Virus record (IMG/VR): IMGVR_UViG_3300009537_000077 | Location: 1 to 36,430 of that record | DNA length: 36,430 nt | Reading direction: 5' to 3' (one strand) | From: a virus | Shown: one piece after another, positions 17,145-34,821 of the stretch | Position numbering within the stretch: the first letter of the stretch is position 1 | Layout: every line of letters starts with the position of its first letter | Program-made: the position numbers and the translations under genes | The notes under the pieces: model-generated | Seen by the model: the letters and a program-made list of their open reading frames with translations, nothing else | Databases searched by the model: none | Told to the model about the DNA's origin: nothing

Positions 17145-19487
17145 CTATCGCCTCCCGCTCGGCACGACCTCCGCCCGGAACGGCCCCACGCGCCAGTCGC
17201 GCTCCACGTTCTCTTCCAGCCGGAGCCGCACCTGGCGGGCCGTGATCCGCACGGGCGTGGGCTCGGCCGTGCTGAAGGGTCCGTGGACACTCTCGAGACC
17301 GGTCGGATGCAGGCGGCTGTACAGCCGCACGTCCACGTCCCCCAGGTTCTTCTCGTCCGGGATCAGTTGCGTCATCGCCAACATCGAATCGCCGGCCCCG
17401 ATCTCGATCGGGCCGCTCTCGAGGTACGCCACCTCGGTGCCCCGATCGAGGCCCTTCTCGTGCTCGTAGATGACGGAGTTCGCGCCCGACTTCTCGATCA
17501 TGATCGGGTACTGGAGCGCGCCCGCGTCCACGCCCGCCAGGCGGGCGAGCTTTCCGACGTACCACACGTTGGTTTGGTAGTTCCAGACTACGTAGCGGTC
17601 GATCTCGGACGTGGTACCCTCTTTCGAGGGGTAGAACCACCACACCTCCCCAAACTGCGTGAGCGACATCGACCACACCTTCGCGGCCTGGTCGATGTTG
17701 ATGTCGTTGAACACGTAGTCCGCCACCTCGCACGGGATTGGGCGCACGTACCCGTCGTACAGGAAGAACTGCTTCGCGCCCATCCACACGATCGTGCCGG
17801 TGTTGATCGAGGCGAACGCCCGCCGGGAGATGATGCCGCAGTTCGCGCCCCGCTGGGAGAGTCCGTACACGTCCTGCCCGCCCACGTACCGCATCGCGTA
17901 CAGCTCCTGGTCGGTCAGGATCAGGTGCTCGCCATCCCCCACGACCGCGCACATGGGGATGCCGTTCCCCTTCAGGTTGTTCGCGCCCGCCCCGATCCCG
18001 GGCGCGGTGGAGCTGAAGTCCCAGTTCGTGAGGTCGTCCTGCTTACACCACGCAATCTGGCGGGGGGAGTCGGTCTCCCCCACCGCAACCAGGAACCGCT
18101 CGGGCGTCACGAAGATGAACCGCACGCCGGCCGGCACGGTGCCCGCGCTGGGCGTGATGACGACCATCGCGCCCGGGTTGCCGCCCGGGAACGTTTGCTG
18201 CCAGATTTTTCCGTCCGAGTTCGAGCACGCGAGGGGCGTAATAACGCCGTTCGCCGTCACGAACTCCGCCAGCGACCAGGTCGTGGCCTCGGTCGCGGTG
18301 CCGTGCAGTCGCGAGGTGCCCGCCCCGTACGTGGTGTCGGCCTGCCCGACCGTGAAGCCCGCGGCGGGCGTCACGTCCGTGAGGGTGCCCGACTCGAAGT
18401 GGTAGATTTTCGAGTGCGTGCCCATCATGAGGTAGGCCGCCCGGCTCACGCCCCGCTCGGACGCGAACACGCCCCGGCAGATTCCGGTCAGCGTGACGAC
18501 CGAGCCGGCCTGGGTCGCGTACGTGACGCCCGCGTGGGGGTCGGCGTCCGTAGCGATGTTGAACCCGTGGAGCGAGAACGAGGCGGTCCCGAGCGCGGGG
18601 TACGAGAACACGATCGTGGAAGCACCACTGAAATTGAGGCCCGCGTCCACGCTCGGAATCCGAAGCCGGATCTGGGCGGTCGGGGTGAGGCCGGCCACGG
18701 TGCCGGAGATCGACTCGTCCTCCCACACGCGGTTCTGTTCCCCGGGCGCAAGGGTGTACACTTTCGTGCCCCGGTTCGTCCATGGGTCATTCCCGTCCGG
18801 GGAGGTCTCGAGCACGATCGTACTGCTCCCGCCCACGAGCCCGGTCGCGGCATTGAGCTGCACCTTGTACCGAACAGTGTAGATGTTGGTCAGGGAGGGC
18901 GCGTTCACCAGTATTGCTGCGGACGAGCCGTCTGGCCCCTGTATCGGGTCAGGCACGCCCGCGTGGGAGGCCGAAACGGGAGGCTGCGTGAACGTCACCA
19001 CCCGGAGCCGGATCTTCTCGGTCGCGGCCTGGCCGGGCAGCTCGAGCGTCACGTCCTCGTGCGGGAACGAGGCCGTACCGAGCCCGGTCTTCGTGTACGT
19101 TTTCCTCTCCTGGGCCGTCCAGACCGCGCCATCCCACGACTCGATGTCCACAATGAGTCGAGCTTCCCCGGAGGGAACCTCGCTGGCCGCGTGCGTGATC
19201 GAGGCGCTGTAGTGGACGGTGTACTTGTCGTCCACGCTGGGCGCGTTCGCGGTCGTGACCTCGGTCGTGCCCCCCTCGACCGTGATGTCGTTCCCGGCCG
19301 GGAAGTCGTCATTCCGGGCGAGCAGGGCGGAGCCCGTCAGCTGCTGCCAGCCCCCGATGGGCTGCGCCACGCCCTGGTACCAACGCACCAGGTGCGTGTC
19401 GAACCAGCGGCCGGAGGAGGCGTACTGCGTCCCCCGACGAACCACGCCGGGCGGCAGGTTGAGCGGCACGTGCTGGGGTTTCGGCAT
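17145..19487 (-). CDS. Tail hub / tubular-type tail protein with inserted beta domains
   Basis: A 780-residue structural protein of the group that forms the podovirus tail hub (compare T7 gp12-type and related phage proteins). The N-terminus (NLPPGVVRRGTQYASSGRW, RWYQGVAQPIGGWQQL) is typical, and the C-terminal 430 residues show repeated propeller-like blades (QIAWCKQDDLTNWDFSS, GEHLILTDQELYAMRYVGG, NTGTIVWMGAKQFFLYDG, EVWWFYPSKEG, DRYVVWNYQTNVWYVGKL). Between residues about 65 and 300 sit two related beta-sandwich domains (NAPSVDDKYTVHY / NAPSLTNIYTVRY; RKTYT / TKVYT; EKIRLRV / AQIRLRI). The ATG at 19487 shares a base with the previous stop; a GTG at 19490 is possible. Confidence 0.78.
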   Translation of the reverse strand: MPKPQHVPLNLPPGVVRRGTQYASSGRWFDTHLVRWYQGVAQPIGGWQQLTGSALLARNDDFPAGNDITVEGGTTEVTTANAPSVDDKYTVHYSASITHAASEVPSGEARLIVDIESWDGAVWTAQERKTYTKTGLGTASFPHEDVTLELPGQAATEKIRLRVVTFTQPPVSASHAGVPDPIQGPDGSSAAILVNAPSLTNIYTVRYKVQLNAATGLVGGSSTIVLETSPDGNDPWTNRGTKVYTLAPGEQNRVWEDESISGTVAGLTPTAQIRLRIPSVDAGLNFSGASTIVFSYPALGTASFSLHGFNIATDADPHAGVTYATQAGSVVTLTGICRGVFASERGVSRAAYLMMGTHSKIYHFESGTLTDVTPAAGFTVGQADTTYGAGTSRLHGTATEATTWSLAEFVTANGVITPLACSNSDGKIWQQTFPGGNPGAMVVITPSAGTVPAGVRFIFVTPERFLVAVGETDSPRQIAWCKQDDLTNWDFSSTAPGIGAGANNLKGNGIPMCAVVGDGEHLILTDQELYAMRYVGGQDVYGLSQRGANCGIISRRAFASINTGTIVWMGAKQFFLYDGYVRPIPCEVADYVFNDINIDQAAKVWSMSLTQFGEVWWFYPSKEGTTSEIDRYVVWNYQTNVWYVGKLARLAGVDAGALQYPIMIEKSGANSVIYEHEKGLDRGTEVAYLESGPIEIGAGDSMLAMTQLIPDEKNLGDVDVRLYSRLHPTGLESVHGPFSTAEPTPVRITARQVRLRLEENVERDWRVGPFRAEVVPSGRR

Positions 19488-19966
19488 CACTCCCCCTGGA
19501 CTTCGAGCGGGACGGGATTGCGGATCGTCACGAAGGCGTGCTCGCCATCATCGAGCGCGGGCCGGATGATCGACTTGAGCGCCAGCAAGTGCAGGCGCGA
19601 GTCGCGCACGGTGCCGCCCGCGGGACCGGGCACCCACTCGCCCACCAGCAGGCAGCCCTCGGTGTCGTCGGCCGTGTTGCCGGCGTGAATGCGAACGTAC
19701 TTGAAGCCCGGCACGCCGATCAGACTCAGGGTCTTGGGGCCGAACTTGGGGCTGGTCACCAGCTCCAGCTCGTACCGCCCCTCCGGGATCGCGGTCCGGC
19801 CGGGGATCTTCCAGTCCGGCGCGCCCCCGTACACGGGCTCCCGGATCGGGTCCTCGAGGCTCGACATGGGGCGCCCGTTCGCAGTGAGTCGCCGGCCTTG
19901 GATGTACAGCCGCCCCTCGGTGGAGCTGCCGATGGTGGGCTCGCGCTGAACTAGCAGCTCGATCAT
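19487..19966 (-). CDS. DUF5675 protein, possible cell-wall enzyme
   Basis: A 159-residue protein of the DUF5675 family. Visible features are TIGSSTEGRLYIQGRRL, SLEDPIREP, AIPEGRYELELVTSPKFGP, and the family's key stretch VRIHAGNTADDTEGCLLVGE. His, Gly and Cys in IHAGN...GC recall the H...S-x-GC-R core of L,D-transpeptidase-like (YkuD) proteins; that likeness is my inference. The start is chosen at the ATG at 19966 (MIELLVQREP), overlapping the holin-like gene by four bases. The frame upstream is open but lies in other genes. Its place next to two small membrane proteins suggests a part in lysis. Confidence 0.75.
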   Translation of the reverse strand: MIELLVQREPTIGSSTEGRLYIQGRRLTANGRPMSSLEDPIREPVYGGAPDWKIPGRTAIPEGRYELELVTSPKFGPKTLSLIGVPGFKYVRIHAGNTADDTEGCLLVGEWVPGPAGGTVRDSRLHLLALKSIIRPALDDGEHAFVTIRNPVPLEVQGE

Positions 19967-20160
19967 TTCGCCTGCCCGGTTCCGTTCTTGAGGGCCGCGT
20001 GGTCCGCGATCGCGTTCGCGGCCTGGTACGCGCCCACCGCGACCGTCACGACCGTCACGAACTCGCCACCGTCGATTTGTCCGAACGCACACAGGGCGGT
20101 CGCGCACGCGAGCGAGCCGGCCGAGATCAGGAACTTCCGCGTCAACAGCTTTGCGATCAT
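19963..20160 (-). CDS. Holin-like small membrane protein (65 aa)
   Basis: A 65-residue protein with two hydrophobic segments: about residues 9-27 (RKFLISAGSLACATALCAFG) and about 34-52 (EFVTVVTVAVGAYQAANAIA). A short charged tail follows (DHAALKNGTGQAK). Size, topology and position between a coiled-coil membrane protein and the DUF5675 gene fit a phage holin. No family motif confirms it. Confidence 0.65.
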   Translation of the reverse strand: MIAKLLTRKFLISAGSLACATALCAFGQIDGGEFVTVVTVAVGAYQAANAIADHAALKNGTGQAK

Positions 20161-21687: not shown

Positions 21688-22019
21688 TAGATCCTCCCCG
21701 GGCGGGTGCGGAACACGCGGTTGTCGGGATCCTCGAGCCAGGCCTTGAAGGCCCGCTCGTCGTCCGCGATACCCCGCCACTGCAGGTCCGCGTACACGTT
21801 CCCGGGGATGGAGGCGTACTTCGTAAAGCCCTCCCCGTGCCGGCCATGCTCGGCGTTGTACTCGGCCTTGTTCTGCTCGACCAACCCCGTCACGTCCTGC
21901 TTGGAGGCGATCGTGAACGTGTCGCTGGCGGGGTCGTAGTGGAACGTCTCCCACGCCAGGTCCTCGGGCGTGACGGAGAACAGTCGATCGTTTACGGCCA
22001 CGGAAGCCTCACTTTCCAT
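21687..22019 (-). CDS. Conserved phage protein, unknown function (110 aa)
   Basis: A 110-residue protein. The motif-rich C-terminal half (KYASIPGNVYADLQWRGIADDERAFKAWLEDPDNRVFRTRPGRI) looks like a conserved phage family seen near head-tail genes. I cannot assign a function. The start at 22019 (MESEASVAVNDRLF) lies 28 bases inside the spanin-like gene. It was preferred because the longer frame upstream reads in the shadow of that gene. It ends in TAG overlapping the GTG of the glycosyltransferase. Confidence 0.6.
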   Translation of the reverse strand: MESEASVAVNDRLFSVTPEDLAWETFHYDPASDTFTIASKQDVTGLVEQNKAEYNAEHGRHGEGFTKYASIPGNVYADLQWRGIADDERAFKAWLEDPDNRVFRTRPGRI

Positions 22020-22561
22020 TGCAGGGACACGCCCGCGCCCGCGCAGGGCCGGCCGTCCGTACACAGTCCCACGAACGGGCCCGCCCCGATTGTGGGCATC
22101 CAGCCCGGCCGGGGACTGGGCACGTCTCTCAGAACCGCCCGGAGCGTGTCGGCCGCCATCCAGGCGTCCGCAAGCGCGCCAGTCAGCAGCCCGATCGCGC
22201 GCCCGCGCTCGACGTAGGCGTGGTTCAGACTATCGACGCTCGCCAGGAGCGTGTCGATAATCTCGTCCCGTTTCGACACGATCGTGGTGCAGGGGGGCGG
22301 AACGGGCTGCCTGCGGACCACCCGCAATCGCGCCCGCGCGACCAGCTCGTACCGGGTCGCCACGCCCGCGAGCGAGTCCGCCCGCACGCCCGCAACCTGG
22401 GCCGCCCGCTCGGCCGTGTCGGCCCGAGCCAGAAGAACCTGGGCGAGCGAGTCCGCCCGCTCCGCCCGGGCTTTCCATTCCCGGAACCGGCCGTCCACGA
22501 ACAGACCGGACACAGCGAGGACGACCGCGATTGCGGCCGCCCACGCCAGTATCCGTTTCAT
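21992..22561 (-). CDS. i-spanin-like coiled-coil membrane protein
   Basis: A 189-residue protein with one N-terminal membrane segment (residues 4-22, ILAWAAAIAVVLAVSGLFV) followed by a long heptad-rich region (about 28-75: EWKARAERADSLAQVLLARADTAERAAQ and on). A Pro/Cys linker and a second helical stretch follow. The C-terminus (GPFVGLCTDGRPCAGAGVSLQWKV) is a beta-like ending common in phage Rz-type proteins. This suits an inner-membrane spanin spanning the periplasm of a Gram-negative host. No o-spanin lipoprotein was found nested in it. Confidence 0.6.
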   Translation of the reverse strand: MKRILAWAAAIAVVLAVSGLFVDGRFREWKARAERADSLAQVLLARADTAERAAQVAGVRADSLAGVATRYELVARARLRVVRRQPVPPPCTTIVSKRDEIIDTLLASVDSLNHAYVERGRAIGLLTGALADAWMAADTLRAVLRDVPSPRPGWMPTIGAGPFVGLCTDGRPCAGAGVSLQWKVRLPWP

Positions 22562-28035: not shown

Positions 28036-29504
28036 TACCACCTCGCTCGGTTTCGGGAGACGGGATCGCGCCAGGCCACCCCGCCCCAGGATTGCCCGCG
28101 GTCCTGGTTCACCACCGCGGCGGGCTCGGACGCGAACGTCAGAATCAGCGCATCGGCAACATCGGGGCTCTTGTGGCCCCGGCGTTTCAGGTCCACCTTC
28201 GACTCCACCATCAGCTTCCCGCTCGAGGTGACGGAGTAGCGAGGCAGCGCAAGCTCTTGGGCCAGAATCTCGACCGGCGAGCGGGGGTCCTTCCGGTTCG
28301 AGGGGAGCGCCACGTCCCGCCGGTCGAGCCACTCGCGCGCCTTGAACCACAGCTCCGCCCGCAGGTTGCGGTACCGGTCCGACCAGGCCGAGCTTTCCGC
28401 GACGTTGATTCCCCGCACGGGCAGCTTCAGCTCCACCAGCCGGTCCACCACGCCCCCGCCGTACCCGATCACGTCCACCAGGATCTCGGTCGGACGCTCG
28501 GTGGGGAGCGTCTTGTCCCACTCGAGCTTCACGCGCCCGGCGGTCGCCATCAGGTCCGTGCCCTCCCACACCAGGATGTCGGACAGCACGCACCGGGCGT
28601 TCCGTTTTACGAGCACGTTCCGGGCGTCCCCGAACCGGGCCACGTCCAGCCCCCACACCACCTCCAGGCTCGGCCGCACGAACAGCTCCCGATTCCGGGC
28701 GGACTCAATCAGCTCGAACGGCACGACCGTGTCGTCGTCCGAGCGCGGGAACTCGCCCAGCACGCGCACCCGGTAGGCGGACGAGTCCTCCCCGTAAATC
28801 TGGGCCACCTCGCGCTCGAACGTGGGCGTGACGCGGGGGGAGTCGGTCCACGAGACCCGCCGGATCCACCAGCCCGAGTTCGGTTGGTGGGTCTTCCAGA
28901 AGAAGCCCGTCGAGCGGGTGGGGTTCGAGAGCAGGAGCGTGGTCGCGTTCGCGCCCGACATCGAGCCCACCGCGGCCTCGAAGATTTTCTCGGGCACGCC
29001 GGACGCCTCGTCCGCGATCAGAAGGACGAACCCGCCCTCGCAGTGAACGCCCTGGAGCGCCTCGGGCGTCTCGGCCCGCGCCGTCCGTACGGAGAGGTAG
29101 CTCTCCTCGGGCGCGGGGATGAAGAAGATCCCGTCGTTCTTCACCTCGAACAGCTGCCGCAGCACGGGCGGCAGGAGCCCGAGCCAGACCTTGACCTCCG
29201 CGAACAGCGCATCCTGCAGTTGCGCTTTCGTGGGCGCCGTCACGACCGTGCGTTGGGGGAAGTGCGTCACCAGCCTATGCACAACCACCCACGCGGCCAC
29301 GCACGTTTTGCCGGGACCGTGGCAGGAGCGGATCGAAATACGGCGCTCGCTCGACCCGATCGCGTGCAACACCTCGAGCTGCCACTCGTCCGGCAGCGCG
29401 CCCAGCTGCTCGCGCACGAACTTCTCGGGCCCCGAGGGGCCCGCGGAGGGGCCGTACTCGCGGATGAACCGCTCCAGTTCCTGCGCGGCCGCCTGGTGGC
29501 TCAC
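28035..29504 (-). CDS. terL: Large terminase subunit
   Basis: A 489-residue DNA-packaging motor. The ATPase has Walker A SIRSCHGPGKTCVAAW (about residues 52-66), Walker B LLIADEASGVPEKI (about 160-172) and coupling motif LLLSNPTRSTGFF. The nuclease domain has its metal Asp residues in VWGLDVARFGDARNVLV (about 283-298), ILVDVIGYGGGVVDRL and HKSPDVADALILTF. The GTG start at 29504 overlaps the previous stop (GTGA). The 35 residues open upstream lie in the adhesin gene and are not counted. The small-terminase-like gene is about 4.8 kb upstream rather than adjacent. Confidence 0.92.
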   Translation of the reverse strand: MSHQAAAQELERFIREYGPSAGPSGPEKFVREQLGALPDEWQLEVLHAIGSSERRISIRSCHGPGKTCVAAWVVVHRLVTHFPQRTVVTAPTKAQLQDALFAEVKVWLGLLPPVLRQLFEVKNDGIFFIPAPEESYLSVRTARAETPEALQGVHCEGGFVLLIADEASGVPEKIFEAAVGSMSGANATTLLLSNPTRSTGFFWKTHQPNSGWWIRRVSWTDSPRVTPTFEREVAQIYGEDSSAYRVRVLGEFPRSDDDTVVPFELIESARNRELFVRPSLEVVWGLDVARFGDARNVLVKRNARCVLSDILVWEGTDLMATAGRVKLEWDKTLPTERPTEILVDVIGYGGGVVDRLVELKLPVRGINVAESSAWSDRYRNLRAELWFKAREWLDRRDVALPSNRKDPRSPVEILAQELALPRYSVTSSGKLMVESKVDLKRRGHKSPDVADALILTFASEPAAVVNQDRGQSWGGVAWRDPVSRNRARW

Positions 29505-32422
29505 GAAGGGAAGTCCGCCCCCGGGCCGGCGCCCTGGGAGGAGCGCCCCAGCAGCTGGCCCCGCCGGAGCCCCTGGGGGTGGTTGATGTCGATCGCGTTC
29601 GGGTCCCAACCCTGGATCGAGCCGTACTGGTCAACCCCGACCGTGCTGGTGGTTGCCGCGACTCCGCTGACAGCGTACGTGGTGGGGGAGGCAATCGAGA
29701 CCCGATCGATGACGAACGTGGCCTCGAAGCCCGTGATCGCGTACGTGGCGGGCTGGGCGTCGCTCGGGGCGTCCCGGCGCGTGTCGACGGGCGCGCCCGC
29801 AAGGGCGTACGTGGTGGGCTGGGCGGGCAGCGCGAGACCGAAACTGGCCGCCGCGCCGGTGAGCGCGTAGCTGCCCGGCTGGGCGTCGATCGTAGCGCCG
29901 GGCGCCTCCGTCTCTGCCGCCACGCCCGTGAGGTCGTAGCTGCCCGGCTGGGCGTCGATCGTAGCGCCGGGCGCCTCCGTCTCTGCCGCCACGCCCGTGA
30001 GGTCGTAGCTGCCCGGCTGGGCATTGGCCGGGATGTCCCGGAGCGTGGTGGCCGCGGCGCCCGTGAGGTCGTAGCTGCCCGGCTGGGCATTGGCCGGGAT
30101 GTCCCGGAGCGTGGTGGCCGCGGCGCCCGTGAGGTCGTAGCTGCCCGGCTGGGCGTCGATCGCGACAGCACGGTGAGTGTCGGCCGCCACGCCCGTGAGG
30201 TCGTAGTTGCCCGGCTGGGCGTCGATCGCGACAGCACGGTGAGTGTCGGCCGCCACGCCCGTGAGGTCGTAGCTGCCCGGCTGGGCATTGGCCGGGATGT
30301 CCCGGAGCGTGGTGGCCGCGGCGCCCGTGAGGGCGTACGAGCCCGCGGCGGCGTTGATCGCGAGGTCGGCGGATGCGGCGGCGCCCGTGAGCGCGTAGAC
30401 ACCCGGTTGGGCATTGGCCGGAATGTCCCGAAGCATGGTGGCCGCGGCGCCCGTGAGCGCGTAAACACCCGGTTGGGCATTGATGCTCGGAGCTGCCAGG
30501 GCCGGGCGCACCACCACGGTGAGCGCCCCCCACTGCTCTGTGAGACTGATGGTCGCGGAGGCGGGATCGTTCGCGAGCGACGTAAGCTCCCGGTGCGCGG
30601 ACCCCAGCAGGGCGCCGAGGACGCTGCCCGGACTGTCCGAGACCCCGTCTACGTAGTTGATCGGGTACGCGGAGACCGTAACGTTCCCGTCTACCCCGAA
30701 CAGCACGAAGAACAGATTGTCGTCGCTGCCCCACGACGCGATCACCTGGGGCGGATTCGGCGTGGTGCTGTTTCCGACAACTATCCCGCCGCTGGTCCGC
30801 TCGGGCGGGGTCGTTCCGTGCCACGTTGCAGCCGCGATTCGCCGGATTCGCCAAGCGCCCCGCTCGATCGCCCCGAGCGTAAGCGTGAAGTTCCCAGACT
30901 CGGAGCCGGTCGCGATCTTGTAGAAATAGATCAGGCTTACATTGCCGTCGCTCCCGAATCCGCTCCCCGACCCGAGCGCGGTCCAGCCCGCCGGCAAACT
31001 GACCGAGGTCGCGTTCCCGTCAGTCGCAGCGAACAGTAGCAGCAGATCGTTCGCTTGGATTGGGCTCGGGTACGTCAGGGTCCAGGTCGAGCTGTCGCTG
31101 CTCTGCACCCCCGCCTGGACGCCCACAACGACCGGGAACCGCCTGTACTGTGTGGCGGCCGTGGCGCCCGTGAGGACATAGCTGCCCGACTGGGCCGGGA
31201 ACCCGAGGTTCGCGCCCGAGGCAACGCCCGTGAGAGCGTAGCTGCCCGGCTGGGCCGGGAACCCGAGGTTCGCGCCCGAGGCAACGCCCGCGAGGACATA
31301 GCTGCCCGGCGCAGCGTTGGTCGAAACGTTTCGCTGGGTCGTTGCCGCGGCGCCCGTGACCGCGTACGCGCCACTGCCGGCCGAAAACCCAAGATCCGCG
31401 CCCGAGGCGGCGCCCGTGAGAGCGTAGCTGCCCGGCTCGGCGTTCGAGGTCTTGTCGCGCGCGGTGGTGGCGGCCGCGCCCGTGACGACGTACGCGCCAC
31501 TGTTGGCCGGGAACCCGAAGTCCGCGCCCGAGGCAGCCCCACTGAGCGCGTAGCTGCCCGGCTGGGCATCGATCGCGATCGCGCGCTGGGTGTCGGCCGC
31601 GAATCCCGAGAGCGCGAGCGAGCCCGCGAGGGCCACGATCGTGATCGCGCGCTGCGCGACCGCCGCAACGCCGGACACGCTGTAGCTGCCGGGCTGGGCA
31701 TCGATCGGGGTGTCGGCCGCGCCCGCGGCCTTGATCTCGATCCCGATCGCGCCCCAGTGGTTCGCGCTGCCCCCGATCGTGGCGTTGACGGTGGTGTCGC
31801 CGCCGTTCGGGTTCTGGTAGTGGACCGCCTGGTTGGTGCGCTCGTTCTCCCAGTGCTGGCCCAGCTCCGTGCGGCCCTCGGTCTCGTCAATCGCGATGTT
31901 CGCGGGGTTGCTCACGCCAGTGCCGATGCCGAACATCGCCAGCATGAGCGAGCCTGTGCCGTCGAACGAGCTGAAGTCGGGCACGGTGGCGGTGTTGTCG
32001 GTCACGCTGGAAATCTGCGCCCGCACCTTCGGGAACGGCGTCGTGGCGTCGAAGCCGGACGCGATCTCCACCAGCCGCCACGACATGGCCGACTGGCCAG
32101 CGGCCCACACGATCCGGATGACCGCGTTGGCGGTCGTGCTGGCCGGGATCACGCGCCAGACCGCGATCGTGCGGCGGTCGGCGTCCCCGAAGCCCTGAGC
32201 GCGGGCCTCGTTCGTGCCGTCCGTGACGGTCGTGAAACTGAGCGGGGTGCCCGTGGGGTCGTGCGTGACGCTCTCGGCGTTCACCGACCCGCCCGAGCGG
32301 TAGCCCGCGACGCACAGCAGGTACAGCCGGTTGGCCGTCAGGACGACCGACTGGGTGTCGTACGAGCTGGCGTTGGCGGTGTTGCCGCTCGCGAAAACTG
32401 TGGTGGGGGTCGAGACCGCCAT
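29501..32422 (-). CDS. Repeat-rich virion adhesin/fibre-like protein (973 aa)
   Basis: A 973-residue protein with two beta-sandwich domains, each followed by tandem short repeats. Domain 1 (about residues 1-235) and domain 2 (about 430-645) share a pattern (RLYLLCVAGY / DLLLLFAATD; RTIAVWRVIPAS / VSLIYFYKIATG; NHWGAIGIEIK / EQWGALTVVVR). Repeats of 20-23 residues, with consensus DAQPGSYxLTGxAAxxxRxxx, occur about nine times at 239-425 and about fourteen times at 647-920. The C-terminus (YGSIQGWDPNAIDINHPQG) is unrelated. It probably forms an extended fibre or head decoration. It sits between small structural genes and large terminase, overlapping both neighbours. Some repeats are identical in DNA, showing recent copying. 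Confidence 0.7.
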   Translation of the reverse strand: MAVSTPTTVFASGNTANASSYDTQSVVLTANRLYLLCVAGYRSGGSVNAESVTHDPTGTPLSFTTVTDGTNEARAQGFGDADRRTIAVWRVIPASTTANAVIRIVWAAGQSAMSWRLVEIASGFDATTPFPKVRAQISSVTDNTATVPDFSSFDGTGSLMLAMFGIGTGVSNPANIAIDETEGRTELGQHWENERTNQAVHYQNPNGGDTTVNATIGGSANHWGAIGIEIKAAGAADTPIDAQPGSYSVSGVAAVAQRAITIVALAGSLALSGFAADTQRAIAIDAQPGSYALSGAASGADFGFPANSGAYVVTGAAATTARDKTSNAEPGSYALTGAASGADLGFSAGSGAYAVTGAAATTQRNVSTNAAPGSYVLAGVASGANLGFPAQPGSYALTGVASGANLGFPAQSGSYVLTGATAATQYRRFPVVVGVQAGVQSSDSSTWTLTYPSPIQANDLLLLFAATDGNATSVSLPAGWTALGSGSGFGSDGNVSLIYFYKIATGSESGNFTLTLGAIERGAWRIRRIAAATWHGTTPPERTSGGIVVGNSTTPNPPQVIASWGSDDNLFFVLFGVDGNVTVSAYPINYVDGVSDSPGSVLGALLGSAHRELTSLANDPASATISLTEQWGALTVVVRPALAAPSINAQPGVYALTGAAATMLRDIPANAQPGVYALTGAAASADLAINAAAGSYALTGAAATTLRDIPANAQPGSYDLTGVAADTHRAVAIDAQPGNYDLTGVAADTHRAVAIDAQPGSYDLTGAAATTLRDIPANAQPGSYDLTGAAATTLRDIPANAQPGSYDLTGVAAETEAPGATIDAQPGSYDLTGVAAETEAPGATIDAQPGSYALTGAAASFGLALPAQPTTYALAGAPVDTRRDAPSDAQPATYAITGFEATFVIDRVSIASPTTYAVSGVAATTSTVGVDQYGSIQGWDPNAIDINHPQGLRRGQLLGRSSQGAGPGADFPS
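29867..30268 (-). repeat. Block-duplicated 66-69 bp coding repeats
   Basis: Six consecutive units come as three adjacent pairs. 29867-29935 and 29936-30004 are identical (69 bp). 30005-30070 and 30071-30136 are identical (66 bp). 30137-30202 and 30203-30268 differ by one base. Each unit encodes one 22-23-residue adhesin repeat. Pairing of identical neighbours points to recent unit-by-unit tandem duplication in frame. Confidence 0.9.
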
Positions 32423-33061: not shown

Positions 33062-33511
33062 TTACGCGAGCGTGAAGATCGTACCCGCGCTCGCCTGGTT
33101 GTTGAACTTCACGGTGAACGTTTCGGTGTCCGCGAGCGTGACGCCCGTGCCGTGGTTCCACCAGGCGATCAAGGGATCGACGGGCGCGGCAGGCGTGTCG
33201 TCGTACAGCACCACGTACTGGAACGGACCGATCGACCCGCCCGCGGCCGTGAACACGACCTGGTCGGACGCGACCGTGACCGTGCCCGCCGCGCGCGTGC
33301 CCGTGGGAGAGACGAGCGCGCTCCCGCCGGCCGCGTAGCCGTTCCCGGCCGCGATCTCGGTCAGGTTGGCCTTCACGGTGTTCGTGGCGACCGGGGCGGG
33401 CGAGTTCACGAGCATGATCATGAACGTGTCGCCCGGCGGGGAGCCGAAAATGTCGATGATCTTGTCGCACAGATACTCGACAAACGAGTTGAACTTGTTG
33501 TACGCGGCCAT
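33062..33511 (-). CDS. Probable head decoration/structural protein (149 aa)
   Basis: A 149-residue beta-rich protein of a common phage structural type. The order is NKFNSFVEYLCDKIIDIFG, FMIMLVNSPAPVATNTVKANLTEIAAGNGYAAGG, SDQVVFTAAGGSIGPFQYVVLYDDT, PLIAWWNHGTGVTLADTETFTVKF. This pattern recurs in many tailed phages, where it is thought to be a capsid-associated or decoration protein. The exact role is not known to me. It has a 31-base gap before it and is followed by the Cys-rich gene. Confidence 0.7.
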   Translation of the reverse strand: MAAYNKFNSFVEYLCDKIIDIFGSPPGDTFMIMLVNSPAPVATNTVKANLTEIAAGNGYAAGGSALVSPTGTRAAGTVTVASDQVVFTAAGGSIGPFQYVVLYDDTPAAPVDPLIAWWNHGTGVTLADTETFTVKFNNQASAGTIFTLA

Positions 33512-33542: not shown

Positions 33543-34064
33543 TTACAGGGAGGGGAGCGAGACGCCCAGACTGTCGTTCGGCATCCGGACGTAGTAGCAC
33601 GTGTGCCCGCGCTGGGTCGAGACCACCAGCAGCGGGAGCTGGGACGAAAGCCAGACCGCCCGGTCGGGCGGACTCATGGGGCACCACTTCTCGCGCTGCT
33701 CGCCATGTAGTTTCCGAGCGAGCCGGAGGGGGTGGGAGTGCCAAATCCCGAGCGTGCCCGGGGGACAGAGGTCCCAGTCCTGCCGAAACCTAGCGACGCC
33801 CGTCCGGCGATTTACGACCTGGTCGCTGATGGTCCAGGGCGCGTCCGCGGCCGCGTACACTCGCGCGGTGTCGTTCACGATCGCGCCCAGCAGACACCGG
33901 CCGTCCTCCACGTGGGAGGTCTCAGCCAGCTGCTCCAGATGGTCGAGCGTTCGCCCCTCGATCTGGATCGAGCGGGCGGTTTCGTGCGGGGGCGAGAACG
34001 TCTGCGCGGGACCGTGGGCCGCGCTCAAAACCACCAGCGCGGTCGCGAGCGCGAGCGCCCTCAC
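33543..34064 (-). CDS. Secreted JAMM/MPN-like metalloprotein (173 aa)
   Basis: A 173-residue protein. Residues 1-21 form a signal-peptide-like start (MR, then ALALATALVVLSAA, then a small-residue cleavage region near GPA-Q). The rest resembles a JAB/MPN fold: Glu53 in SHVEDGRCLLGAIV, His109-x-His111 in LGIWHSHP, then Ser131-x2-Asp134 in CPMSPPDRAVW, and LLVVSTQRG. The classical JAMM spacing from the second His to Asp is ten residues; here it is 22, with a basic insert (RLARKLHGEQREKW). If active it would be a zinc isopeptidase or peptidase acting outside the cytoplasm. It overlaps the holin-like gene by four bases. Confidence 0.68.
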   Translation of the reverse strand: MRALALATALVVLSAAHGPAQTFSPPHETARSIQIEGRTLDHLEQLAETSHVEDGRCLLGAIVNDTARVYAAADAPWTISDQVVNRRTGVARFRQDWDLCPPGTLGIWHSHPLRLARKLHGEQREKWCPMSPPDRAVWLSSQLPLLVVSTQRGHTCYYVRMPNDSLGVSLPSL

Positions 34065-34327
34065 CGCAGAAATACCTCGGTCAGGGCCGCAGCGAGCGCG
34101 GGCGCGAGCACGTCCATGACGCGATCGAGCGTATCGAGCTTGACGCCCGCCGCCTTACGGTGTATCACCTGCTCCGCCTCACGGAGCCCGTAGAACACGA
34201 CCGCCGTGGTCGCTCCGAACGCCCACGCGATCGGAACGGCCAGCACAGCGTGCATGATCCAGCTCGTCCAGGGGTGATCGCCCGCCAGATCGGACAGGTA
34301 CCGAACGATACTCCACAGCCAGCTCAT
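34061..34327 (-). CDS. Small membrane protein, holin-like (88 aa)
   Basis: An 88-residue protein with a hydrophobic segment at about residues 23-47 (WIMHAVLAVPIAWAFGATTAVVFYG), preceded by an amphipathic start (MSWLWSIVRYLSDLAG). An amphipathic helical tail (DTLDRVMDVLAPALAAALTEV) follows. The YGLREAEQ and LDRVMDVLAPAL phrases recur in small phage membrane proteins sometimes called holins. The start at 34327 overlaps the small-terminase-like gene by four bases. It pairs with the secreted JAMM protein gene that follows. Confidence 0.65.
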   Translation of the reverse strand: MSWLWSIVRYLSDLAGDHPWTSWIMHAVLAVPIAWAFGATTAVVFYGLREAEQVIHRKAAGVKLDTLDRVMDVLAPALAAALTEVFLR

Positions 34328-34821
34328 GGGGCGCTCCGTGTGAGTTGTGGTCGCGGTGGGGGCGCGATCTCCTCGATCTCGGCCTCCCGGATCGGCAGGG
34401 AGGACGCACCCCCGTGCCGGCGGAGGGCGCCCAGGTACAGCTCCCCGATCTGCACGATCGTGGTCTGCTCGGGCTGCCCGTAGTCGTTCCGGTTGAACTT
34501 CTCGGCCAGCCAGCGCCGGTGGCCCGCGCGCGCTTCCGCCAGCCGCACCTCGGGCGGGCTGACCTCCTGGTCGGCCAGCTTCTCCAGGATGTCGCCCGCG
34601 TCCTCCACGTGCGCGTGGGCGGAGTCCGAGCGCGCCTCCCGCATCCGGGCCTGGCGCTCGCCACCCCCCGCGCGGATCCACTTGTAGATCATGCCGCGCG
34701 AGGTGGCAAGCTCGTCCGCGATGTCGGTCACGGGCCGGCCGCCCCTCACCTCGTCAAAGAACCACTCCTCCCGCTTGTCCAGCTCCCCGAACACGCGCCG
34801 CTTTACAGGCTGGCCGGCCAC
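34324..34821 (-). CDS. terS: Small terminase-like HTH protein
   Basis: A 165-residue protein. Residues about 15-52 hold a helix-turn-helix (WFFDEVRGGRPVTDIADELATSRGMIYKWIR). A helical region with the typical small-terminase order follows (ARMREARSDSAHAHVEDAGDILEKLAD, then VRLAEARAGHRRWLAEKFNRNDYG). The C-terminus is Pro-rich. This fits small terminase subunits that recognise the packaging site. It overlaps both neighbours. A transcription regulator is the alternative, but the RxxARxxHRRWLAEK(F) ...YG pattern favours terminase. Confidence 0.75.
   Translation of the reverse strand: MAGQPVKRRVFGELDKREEWFFDEVRGGRPVTDIADELATSRGMIYKWIRAGGGERQARMREARSDSAHAHVEDAGDILEKLADQEVSPPEVRLAEARAGHRRWLAEKFNRNDYGQPEQTTIVQIGELYLGALRRHGGASSLPIREAEIEEIAPPPRPQLTRSAP

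What the first reader, a model, noticed from the sequence alone, without database searches (positions are those of the whole stretch)
33543..34327. Signal-peptide JAMM-like protein paired with a small membrane protein
The 173-residue protein has an export signal, a Glu, HSHP and SPPD as in JAMM enzymes, but 22 rather than 10 residues between the second His and the Asp. JAB domains in phages are usually part of cytoplasmic tail-tip proteins. A secreted one beside a holin-like gene suggests a periplasmic peptidase for lysis or superinfection control, a type I do not recognise.
Basis: partly seen in the sequence, partly recalled or inferred. Interest (0 to 1): 0.65.

Follow-up and report, generated by a model that had tools for sequence, protein, structure and literature searches.

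The report
Exported phage JAMM-like peptidase candidate
This phage carries a small protein with an export signal and the zinc-site residues of JAMM peptidases, in the same overlapping gene string as a small membrane protein; it probably acts in the cell envelope late in infection, but its structure, activity and target are all unproven.

Summary
ORF 33543-34064(-) encodes 173 aa with a signal peptide, Glu53, HSHP (109-112) and SPPD (131-134), with 22 residues between His111 and Asp134 against 10 in the canonical motif. It overlaps by 4 bp an 88-aa membrane protein, which overlaps TerS by 4 bp.

Pfam, PHROGs and NCBIfam do not recognise it. The only family model that matches sensibly is PADLOC 'JAB' (E=0.017, residues 30-113). 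AlphaFold had too few relatives to help (pLDDT 37 and 47).

A DNA-motif scan of IMG/VR found one distant relative in an otherwise unrelated phage (L112). It has a signal peptide, the same Glu-x6-Gly, HTHP, SxxD and all four cysteines, again with a long His-to-Asp loop (17 residues). That gene lies between a VanY-type endolysin and a coiled-coil membrane protein that looks like a spanin.

I read both as a small family of exported, probably disulfide-stabilised, JAMM-like phage proteins, most likely lysis accessories. The substrate is unknown. 'Secreted JAB in a phage' is not wholly new: Zhang et al. 2012 (PMC3482391) noted secreted Tox-JAB-2 proteins in Xanthomonas phages. New here are the sequence family, long loop, cysteine set and late/lysis context.

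The parts
33543..34064 (-). Exported JAMM-like protein, 173 aa, GTG start
   Evidence: weak PADLOC 'JAB' match E=0.017 over residues 30-113
34005..34064 (-). Signal peptide (residues 1-20, predicted cleavage GPA|Q)
   Evidence: hydrophobicity rank and (-3,-1) rule; no SignalP available
33906..33908 (-). Glu53, candidate catalytic Glu; E-x6-Gly60 with Leu at +5 as in Prok-JAB E-C-C-G-x-L-x-G
   Evidence: conserved in L112; Prok-JAB alignment A4 E21/L26/G28
33729..33740 (-). HSHP, residues 109-112 (candidate Zn ligands H109, H111)
   Evidence: hhalign register with Prok-JAB YHSHP
33675..33728 (-). 18-residue stretch (113-130), 12 longer than canonical, ending soon after Trp127-Cys128, which L112 shares
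33663..33674 (-). SPPD, residues 131-134 (candidate Zn ligand Asp134)
34061..34327 (-). 88-aa membrane protein, one clear TM segment; holin candidate by position only; GTGA overlap with the JAMM gene, ATGA overlap with TerS
34324..34821 (-). Terminase small subunit, first gene of the overlapping trio
   Evidence: PF20901 E=1.2e-6, phrog_1482 E=6e-9
21992..22561 (-). Spanin-like candidate (N-terminal TM plus heptad-rich region), distant in the window; same architecture as a gene downstream of the JAMM gene in L112
   Evidence: no family match that names it

Best explanation
It is a divergent JAMM (MPN+/JAB)-type metalloprotein that is made late, exported through the inner membrane by a cleavable signal peptide and held together by two disulfides. 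I think it works in the periplasm as an accessory of lysis: a zinc ion held by His109, His111 and Asp134, with Glu53 as general base, hydrolyses an isopeptide-like amide bond in the envelope (peptidoglycan cross-link or a periplasmic/envelope protein). The overlapping small membrane protein would be its co-expressed partner, a holin or membrane anchor. Shown: the ORF, motif residues, overlapping gene order, and a second phage with the same features in a lysis-like context. Strongly indicated: export. Inferred: fold, zinc, disulfides, catalysis, substrate and the role of the partner.
For: Signal peptide and frame. Motif combination is absent from 5,814 unselected phage frames. The only sensible family hit is PADLOC JAB, E=0.017, spanning the Glu and HSHP region. 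hhalign with 8 Prok-JAB domains gives probability 74% (2-sequence profile) or 58% (single sequence), with HSHP and the following strand in register. The relative L112:12703-13260 has a signal peptide and conserves Glu, RC, LG, CP, WHxHP, WC, SxxD and RG..C, including all four Cys; the part upstream of the search motif alone aligns better than 99.5% of shuffles. In L112 the gene follows a VanY/phrog_2649 endolysin and a lipoprotein-like gene it overlaps, and precedes a TM+coiled-coil gene. In the window the gene sits in the TerS string.
Against: HMMER scoring against Prok-JAB is no better than shuffles that keep GIWHSHP (270 of 2000 reach it); L112 alone shows no significant similarity to Prok-JAB or PADLOC JAB. 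Foldseek finds no JAMM fold, though the models are too poor to count. The canonical x7 spacing is not met. Only two members were found. L112 has its own endolysin, so the JAMM protein is not needed there as the main lytic enzyme. The small membrane proteins next to the two JAMM genes are not detectably related. In the window the spanin-like gene and the DUF5675 gene are 11-14 kb away, so there is no compact lysis cassette.
Confidence: 0.42

Rival explanations
1. An exported JAB-domain protein aimed at something other than the infected cell's own lysis: superinfection control, or release to act on rival cells, in the manner proposed for secreted Tox-JAB-2/DUF4329 proteins of phages and giant viruses.
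For: Zhang et al. 2012 describe secreted Tox-JAB-2 proteins in Xanthomonas phages with E, H[ST]H, S, D (PMC3482391). The gene is an accessory: the TerL relatives searched lack it.
Against: No Pfam DUF4329 match even at E<=1. No immunity-like partner or toxin-delivery domain. The L112 relative lies among lysis-like genes.
Confidence: 0.22
2. A JAMM fold that no longer cuts, or cuts nucleic acid as proposed for RadC and toxin JABs: an exported binding, scaffold or nuclease protein.
For: Changed His-to-Asp spacing; RadC and Tox-JABs have been argued to be nucleases rather than peptidases (PMC3482391).
Against: All four candidate catalytic residues (Glu, His, His, Asp) are kept in both members.
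Confidence: 0.15
3. Not a JAMM protein: an unrelated exported protein in which the motif arose by chance or by a different metal site (for example a cupin-like HxH or an M23-like HxH).
For: Family searches with Pfam, PHROGs and NCBIfam are empty or irrelevant and profile scores beyond HSHP are weak.
Against: Two distant proteins share the whole residue set; PADLOC JAB is the best library match; by inspection no Glu follows HxH as in cupins and no HxxxD precedes it as in M23.
Confidence: 0.15

Closest known systems
Prok-JAB / M67-type JAMM (PF14464), including phage tail protein K
   Same: Glu with Gly at +7 and hydrophobic at +5, G-x-[YW]-H-S-H-P, S-x-x-D, then a beta strand ending in a Gly turn
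   Different: Exported; four Cys shared with L112; HxH-x19-SxxD (x14 in L112) instead of x7; no NlpC/P60 or ubiquitin-like partner gene as in tail clusters (Iyer et al. 2006, PMC1779556); no Pfam score
Tox-JAB-2 / DUF4329 (PF14220), secreted versions in Xanthomonas phages
   Same: Secreted phage protein with E, H[ST]H, S, D (PMC3482391)
   Different: No detectable DUF4329 score. The phage OP1 sequence was not found under the accession tried, so no direct comparison was made
PADLOC 'JAB' (PDLC00890)
   Same: Weak match E=0.017 over residues 30-113
   Different: Below any safe threshold; no defence genes seen nearby
L112:12703-13260 (IMGVR_UViG_3300036861_000513)
   Same: Signal peptide, all motif residues, four Cys, long loop, overlap with an upstream small exported or membrane protein gene
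   Different: 25% identity over 120 aa; in a phage with different core genes; sits beside a VanY endolysin

Membership tests
JAMM / MPN+ (motif E-xn-H[S/T]H-x7-S-x2-D, PMC300881, PMC9313428) | Catalytic Glu upstream on the first strand | tested here: met
   E53 with Gly at +7 and Leu at +5, same in L112; 1.9% of shuffles
JAMM / MPN+ (motif E-xn-H[S/T]H-x7-S-x2-D, PMC300881, PMC9313428) | H[ST]H(P) | tested here: met
   HSHP 109-112, HTHP in L112
JAMM / MPN+ (motif E-xn-H[S/T]H-x7-S-x2-D, PMC300881, PMC9313428) | Seven residues between HxH and SxxD | tested here: not met
   19 here and 14 in L112; 7 in the 11 Prok-JAB domains extracted
JAMM / MPN+ (motif E-xn-H[S/T]H-x7-S-x2-D, PMC300881, PMC9313428) | SxxD present downstream | tested here: met
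   SPPD and SGMD; 9.6% of shuffles have one by chance
JAMM / MPN+ (motif E-xn-H[S/T]H-x7-S-x2-D, PMC300881, PMC9313428) | Profile similarity to JAB models | tested here: inconclusive
   PADLOC JAB E=0.017, hhalign 58-74%, but HMMER vs Prok-JAB is no better than motif-keeping shuffles and Pfam is empty
JAMM / MPN+ (motif E-xn-H[S/T]H-x7-S-x2-D, PMC300881, PMC9313428) | JAMM fold with zinc geometry | tested here: inconclusive
   AlphaFold pLDDT 37.5 and 47.3; order of elements fits (H37-49, E58-63, E104-110, H132-141, E145-149, E154-158) but the second alignment held JAB rows and Foldseek found nothing
Tox-JAB-2 / DUF4329 | Pfam PF14220 score | tested here: not met
   No Pfam family at E<=1
Phage tail protein K (JAB + NlpC/P60) | Position in the tail-tip cluster next to TAPI/TAPJ, cytoplasmic, NlpC/P60 fusion | tested here: not met
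   Exported, no fusion, next to TerS
Holin (for the 88-aa protein) | Membrane pore or lesion formation timed before lysis | not testable with these tools
   One clear TM segment only; no credible family match

The most novel reading that the evidence does not exclude
A previously undescribed family of phage-encoded, exported, disulfide-stabilised JAMM isopeptidases that open peptidoglycan by cutting the amide between D-Ala and the side-chain amine of diaminopimelate, a bond chemically like the isopeptide bonds that JAMM enzymes cut in ubiquitin chains; in the window phage, where no standard endolysin was found, it could be the main lytic enzyme.
Probability: 0.12. Interest if true: 0.8.

Novelty: new variant of a known kind. 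Interest (0 to 1): 0.42.

Why it matters
JAMM enzymes are known mainly as intracellular isopeptidases of ubiquitin-like systems; an exported one used by phages against the cell envelope would extend the chemistry of the fold to a new compartment and perhaps a new substrate, and would add a metallo-isopeptidase class to the list of lysis enzymes. The distinctive marks (signal peptide, four Cys, WC before SxxD) give a usable search signature.

Tried and rejected
Homologue searches that found nothing: exact-peptide scans of IMG/VR with the protein, its core and a 2-row alignment, tblastn in phages and plasmids, TerS relatives, 73 loci from TerL relatives (49 of their whole records with a profile). 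Genome scans: 14 pattern matches, none a real member; profile scans of 297, 199 and 299 genomes gave only weak matches on frames that look spurious, or nothing. Two further motif scans gave only canonical JABs or chance frames. AlphaFold twice: confidence too low, Foldseek meaningless. Testing whether the two small membrane proteins are homologous: not detectable (p=0.47). Feeding hand-cut JAB fragments to steer the alignment was tried in the Python box and dropped as circular. Cupin and M23 readings of HxH rejected by inspection (no Glu after HxH; no HxxxD before it). DUF4329 sampling in planctomycete genomes: nothing rang, also not in controls, so it shows nothing. Xanthomonas phages OP1 and Xp10 were not found under the accession numbers tried.

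Full report
What is there. The window is a 36,430-base IMG/VR virus record with no exact end repeat, 69% GC, with an SU10-type head/tail module: portal PF23899, capsid PF17236, adaptor PF24175, plus TerL. At its right end three genes on the minus strand overlap by 4 bases each: TerS 34324-34821, an 88-aa membrane protein 34061-34327, and the 173-aa protein of the finding, 33543-34064. Codon-position GC (0.69/0.51/0.87) matches the structural genes, so the frame is real. It starts with GTG, the first start codon after the upstream stop.

The protein. Residues 1-20 form a standard signal peptide (one Arg, a 13-residue hydrophobic core, GPA|Q). Only the spanin-like protein in the window has a more hydrophobic N-terminus. 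The mature part holds E53DGRCLLG60, LCPPGTLGIWHSHP112, KWCPMSPPD134 and LLVVSTQRGHTCYYV. E-x6-G with a Leu at +5 is the register of the Prok-JAB E-C-C-G-x-L-x-G motif (alignment A4). HxH to SxxD is 19 residues, where the 11 Prok-JAB domains I extracted all have 7.

Is it more than chance? In 0.81 Mb of phage DNA that was not picked by this motif, 4 of 5,814 frames have H[ST]HP and none has the full set. If the protein is shuffled while GIWHSHP is kept, the Glu motif and SxxD both appear in 0.25%.

Relatives. Database searches with the sequence gave nothing, so I scanned IMG/VR for a DNA pattern of WH[ST]HP, a gap, then C-x-x-S-x-x-D. One of 38 stretches is a real relative: L112:12703-13260, 185 aa, with its own signal peptide. 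Over 120 residues it is 25% identical and keeps E, RC, LG, CP, T, WHxHP, WC, SxxD, V, RG and C. All four cysteines are conserved, three of them outside the search pattern. The BLASTP E-value (8e-6) is inflated because the locus was chosen by motif; without the motif the N-terminal part still beats 99.5% of shuffles, the C-terminal part only 86%. HxH to SxxD is 14 residues there, so a long, variable loop ending near WC marks this small family. By tblastn the two records share only the JAMM gene (E=0.001) and a marginal match to the phrog_644 gene (E=0.003).

Context in L112. The order is tail protein, two or three small genes (some with TM segments), an M15/VanY endolysin (PF02557 E=4e-5, phrog_2649 endolysin E=1.6e-4), a 132-aa exported protein with an HELAHH zinc motif, a lipoprotein-like exported protein (phrog_26616, E=0.008), the JAMM gene (overlapping it by 4 bases), a DUF6527-like gene, and a TM+coiled-coil protein that looks like a spanin. 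The spanin-like and HExxH readings are mine from the sequence. This is the main evidence for a link to lysis.

Membership. I tested it against JAMM. Met: Glu, HxHP, SxxD. Not met: the x7 spacing. Inconclusive: profile similarity and fold. PADLOC's JAB model is the best relevant hit of any library (E=0.017, residues 30-113) and hhalign with 8 Prok-JAB domains gives 58-74%; but HMMER scores against Prok-JAB are reached by 270 of 2,000 motif-keeping shuffles. L112 alone shows no significant profile similarity. AlphaFold gave pLDDT 37.5 (two sequences) and 47.3 (six rows, four of them canonical JABs and partly misaligned), and Foldseek found nothing. So 'works like a JAMM enzyme' is likely, about 0.8 in my judgement; 'is a member of a named JAMM family' is not claimed.

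Mechanism. JAMM enzymes cut isopeptide bonds with a zinc held by two His and an Asp, with a Glu at the site (PMC300881 abstract; PMC9313428). In the periplasm of a Gram-negative host the most abundant bond of a similar kind is the D-Ala to diaminopimelate cross-link; that is a hypothesis from chemistry, not from data. A role in lysis fits the overlapping string with a membrane protein and the L112 context. Window genes that could complete lysis are a spanin-like gene at 21992-22561 and a DUF5675 gene at 19487-20107; no standard endolysin was recognised, but the record may be a fragment.

Prior knowledge. Phage JABs are best known from tail protein K with NlpC/P60 (PMC1779556). Zhang et al. 2012 wrote that all previously identified prokaryotic JABs were intracellular, and reported secreted Tox-JAB-2 (DUF4329) proteins in Xanthomonas phages and large DNA viruses as possible virulence factors (PMC3482391). 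So an exported phage JAB is a known idea, without experiments that I could find in the held library; this sequence family, loop, cysteine set and context are additional. I rate it a new variant of a known kind.

Noticed in passing
window 21992-22561 (-): 189-aa protein with N-terminal TM and a long DSL/DTL heptad-rich region, C-terminus rich in Gly and two Cys; spanin-like, resembles L112:13840-14466 in architecture.
   Followed up: partly
window 19487-20107 (-): DUF5675 protein (PF18925 E=1.4e-20) with the motif RIHAGNTADDTEGCLLVG, possibly peptidoglycan-related; the true start is probably the internal Met near residue 48.
   Followed up: no
window 33062-33511 (-): phrog_644 protein directly downstream of the JAMM gene; relative of Pseudanabaena phage Pam1 gene 09 (46.9% identity), whose function is not annotated.
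   Followed up: partly
window 29501-32422 (-): 973-aa protein with many repeats of NAQPGSYALTGAAA type between TerL and the small genes; a similar repeat-rich gene (different repeat) precedes TerL in L002.
   Followed up: no
L112:11387-11785 (+): 132-aa exported protein with WEIAHELAHH, a small zincin-like candidate next to a VanY endolysin in a phage.
   Followed up: no
L112:13239-13637 (+): Weak match to DUF6527 (PF20137, E=0.002) directly after the JAMM gene.
   Followed up: no
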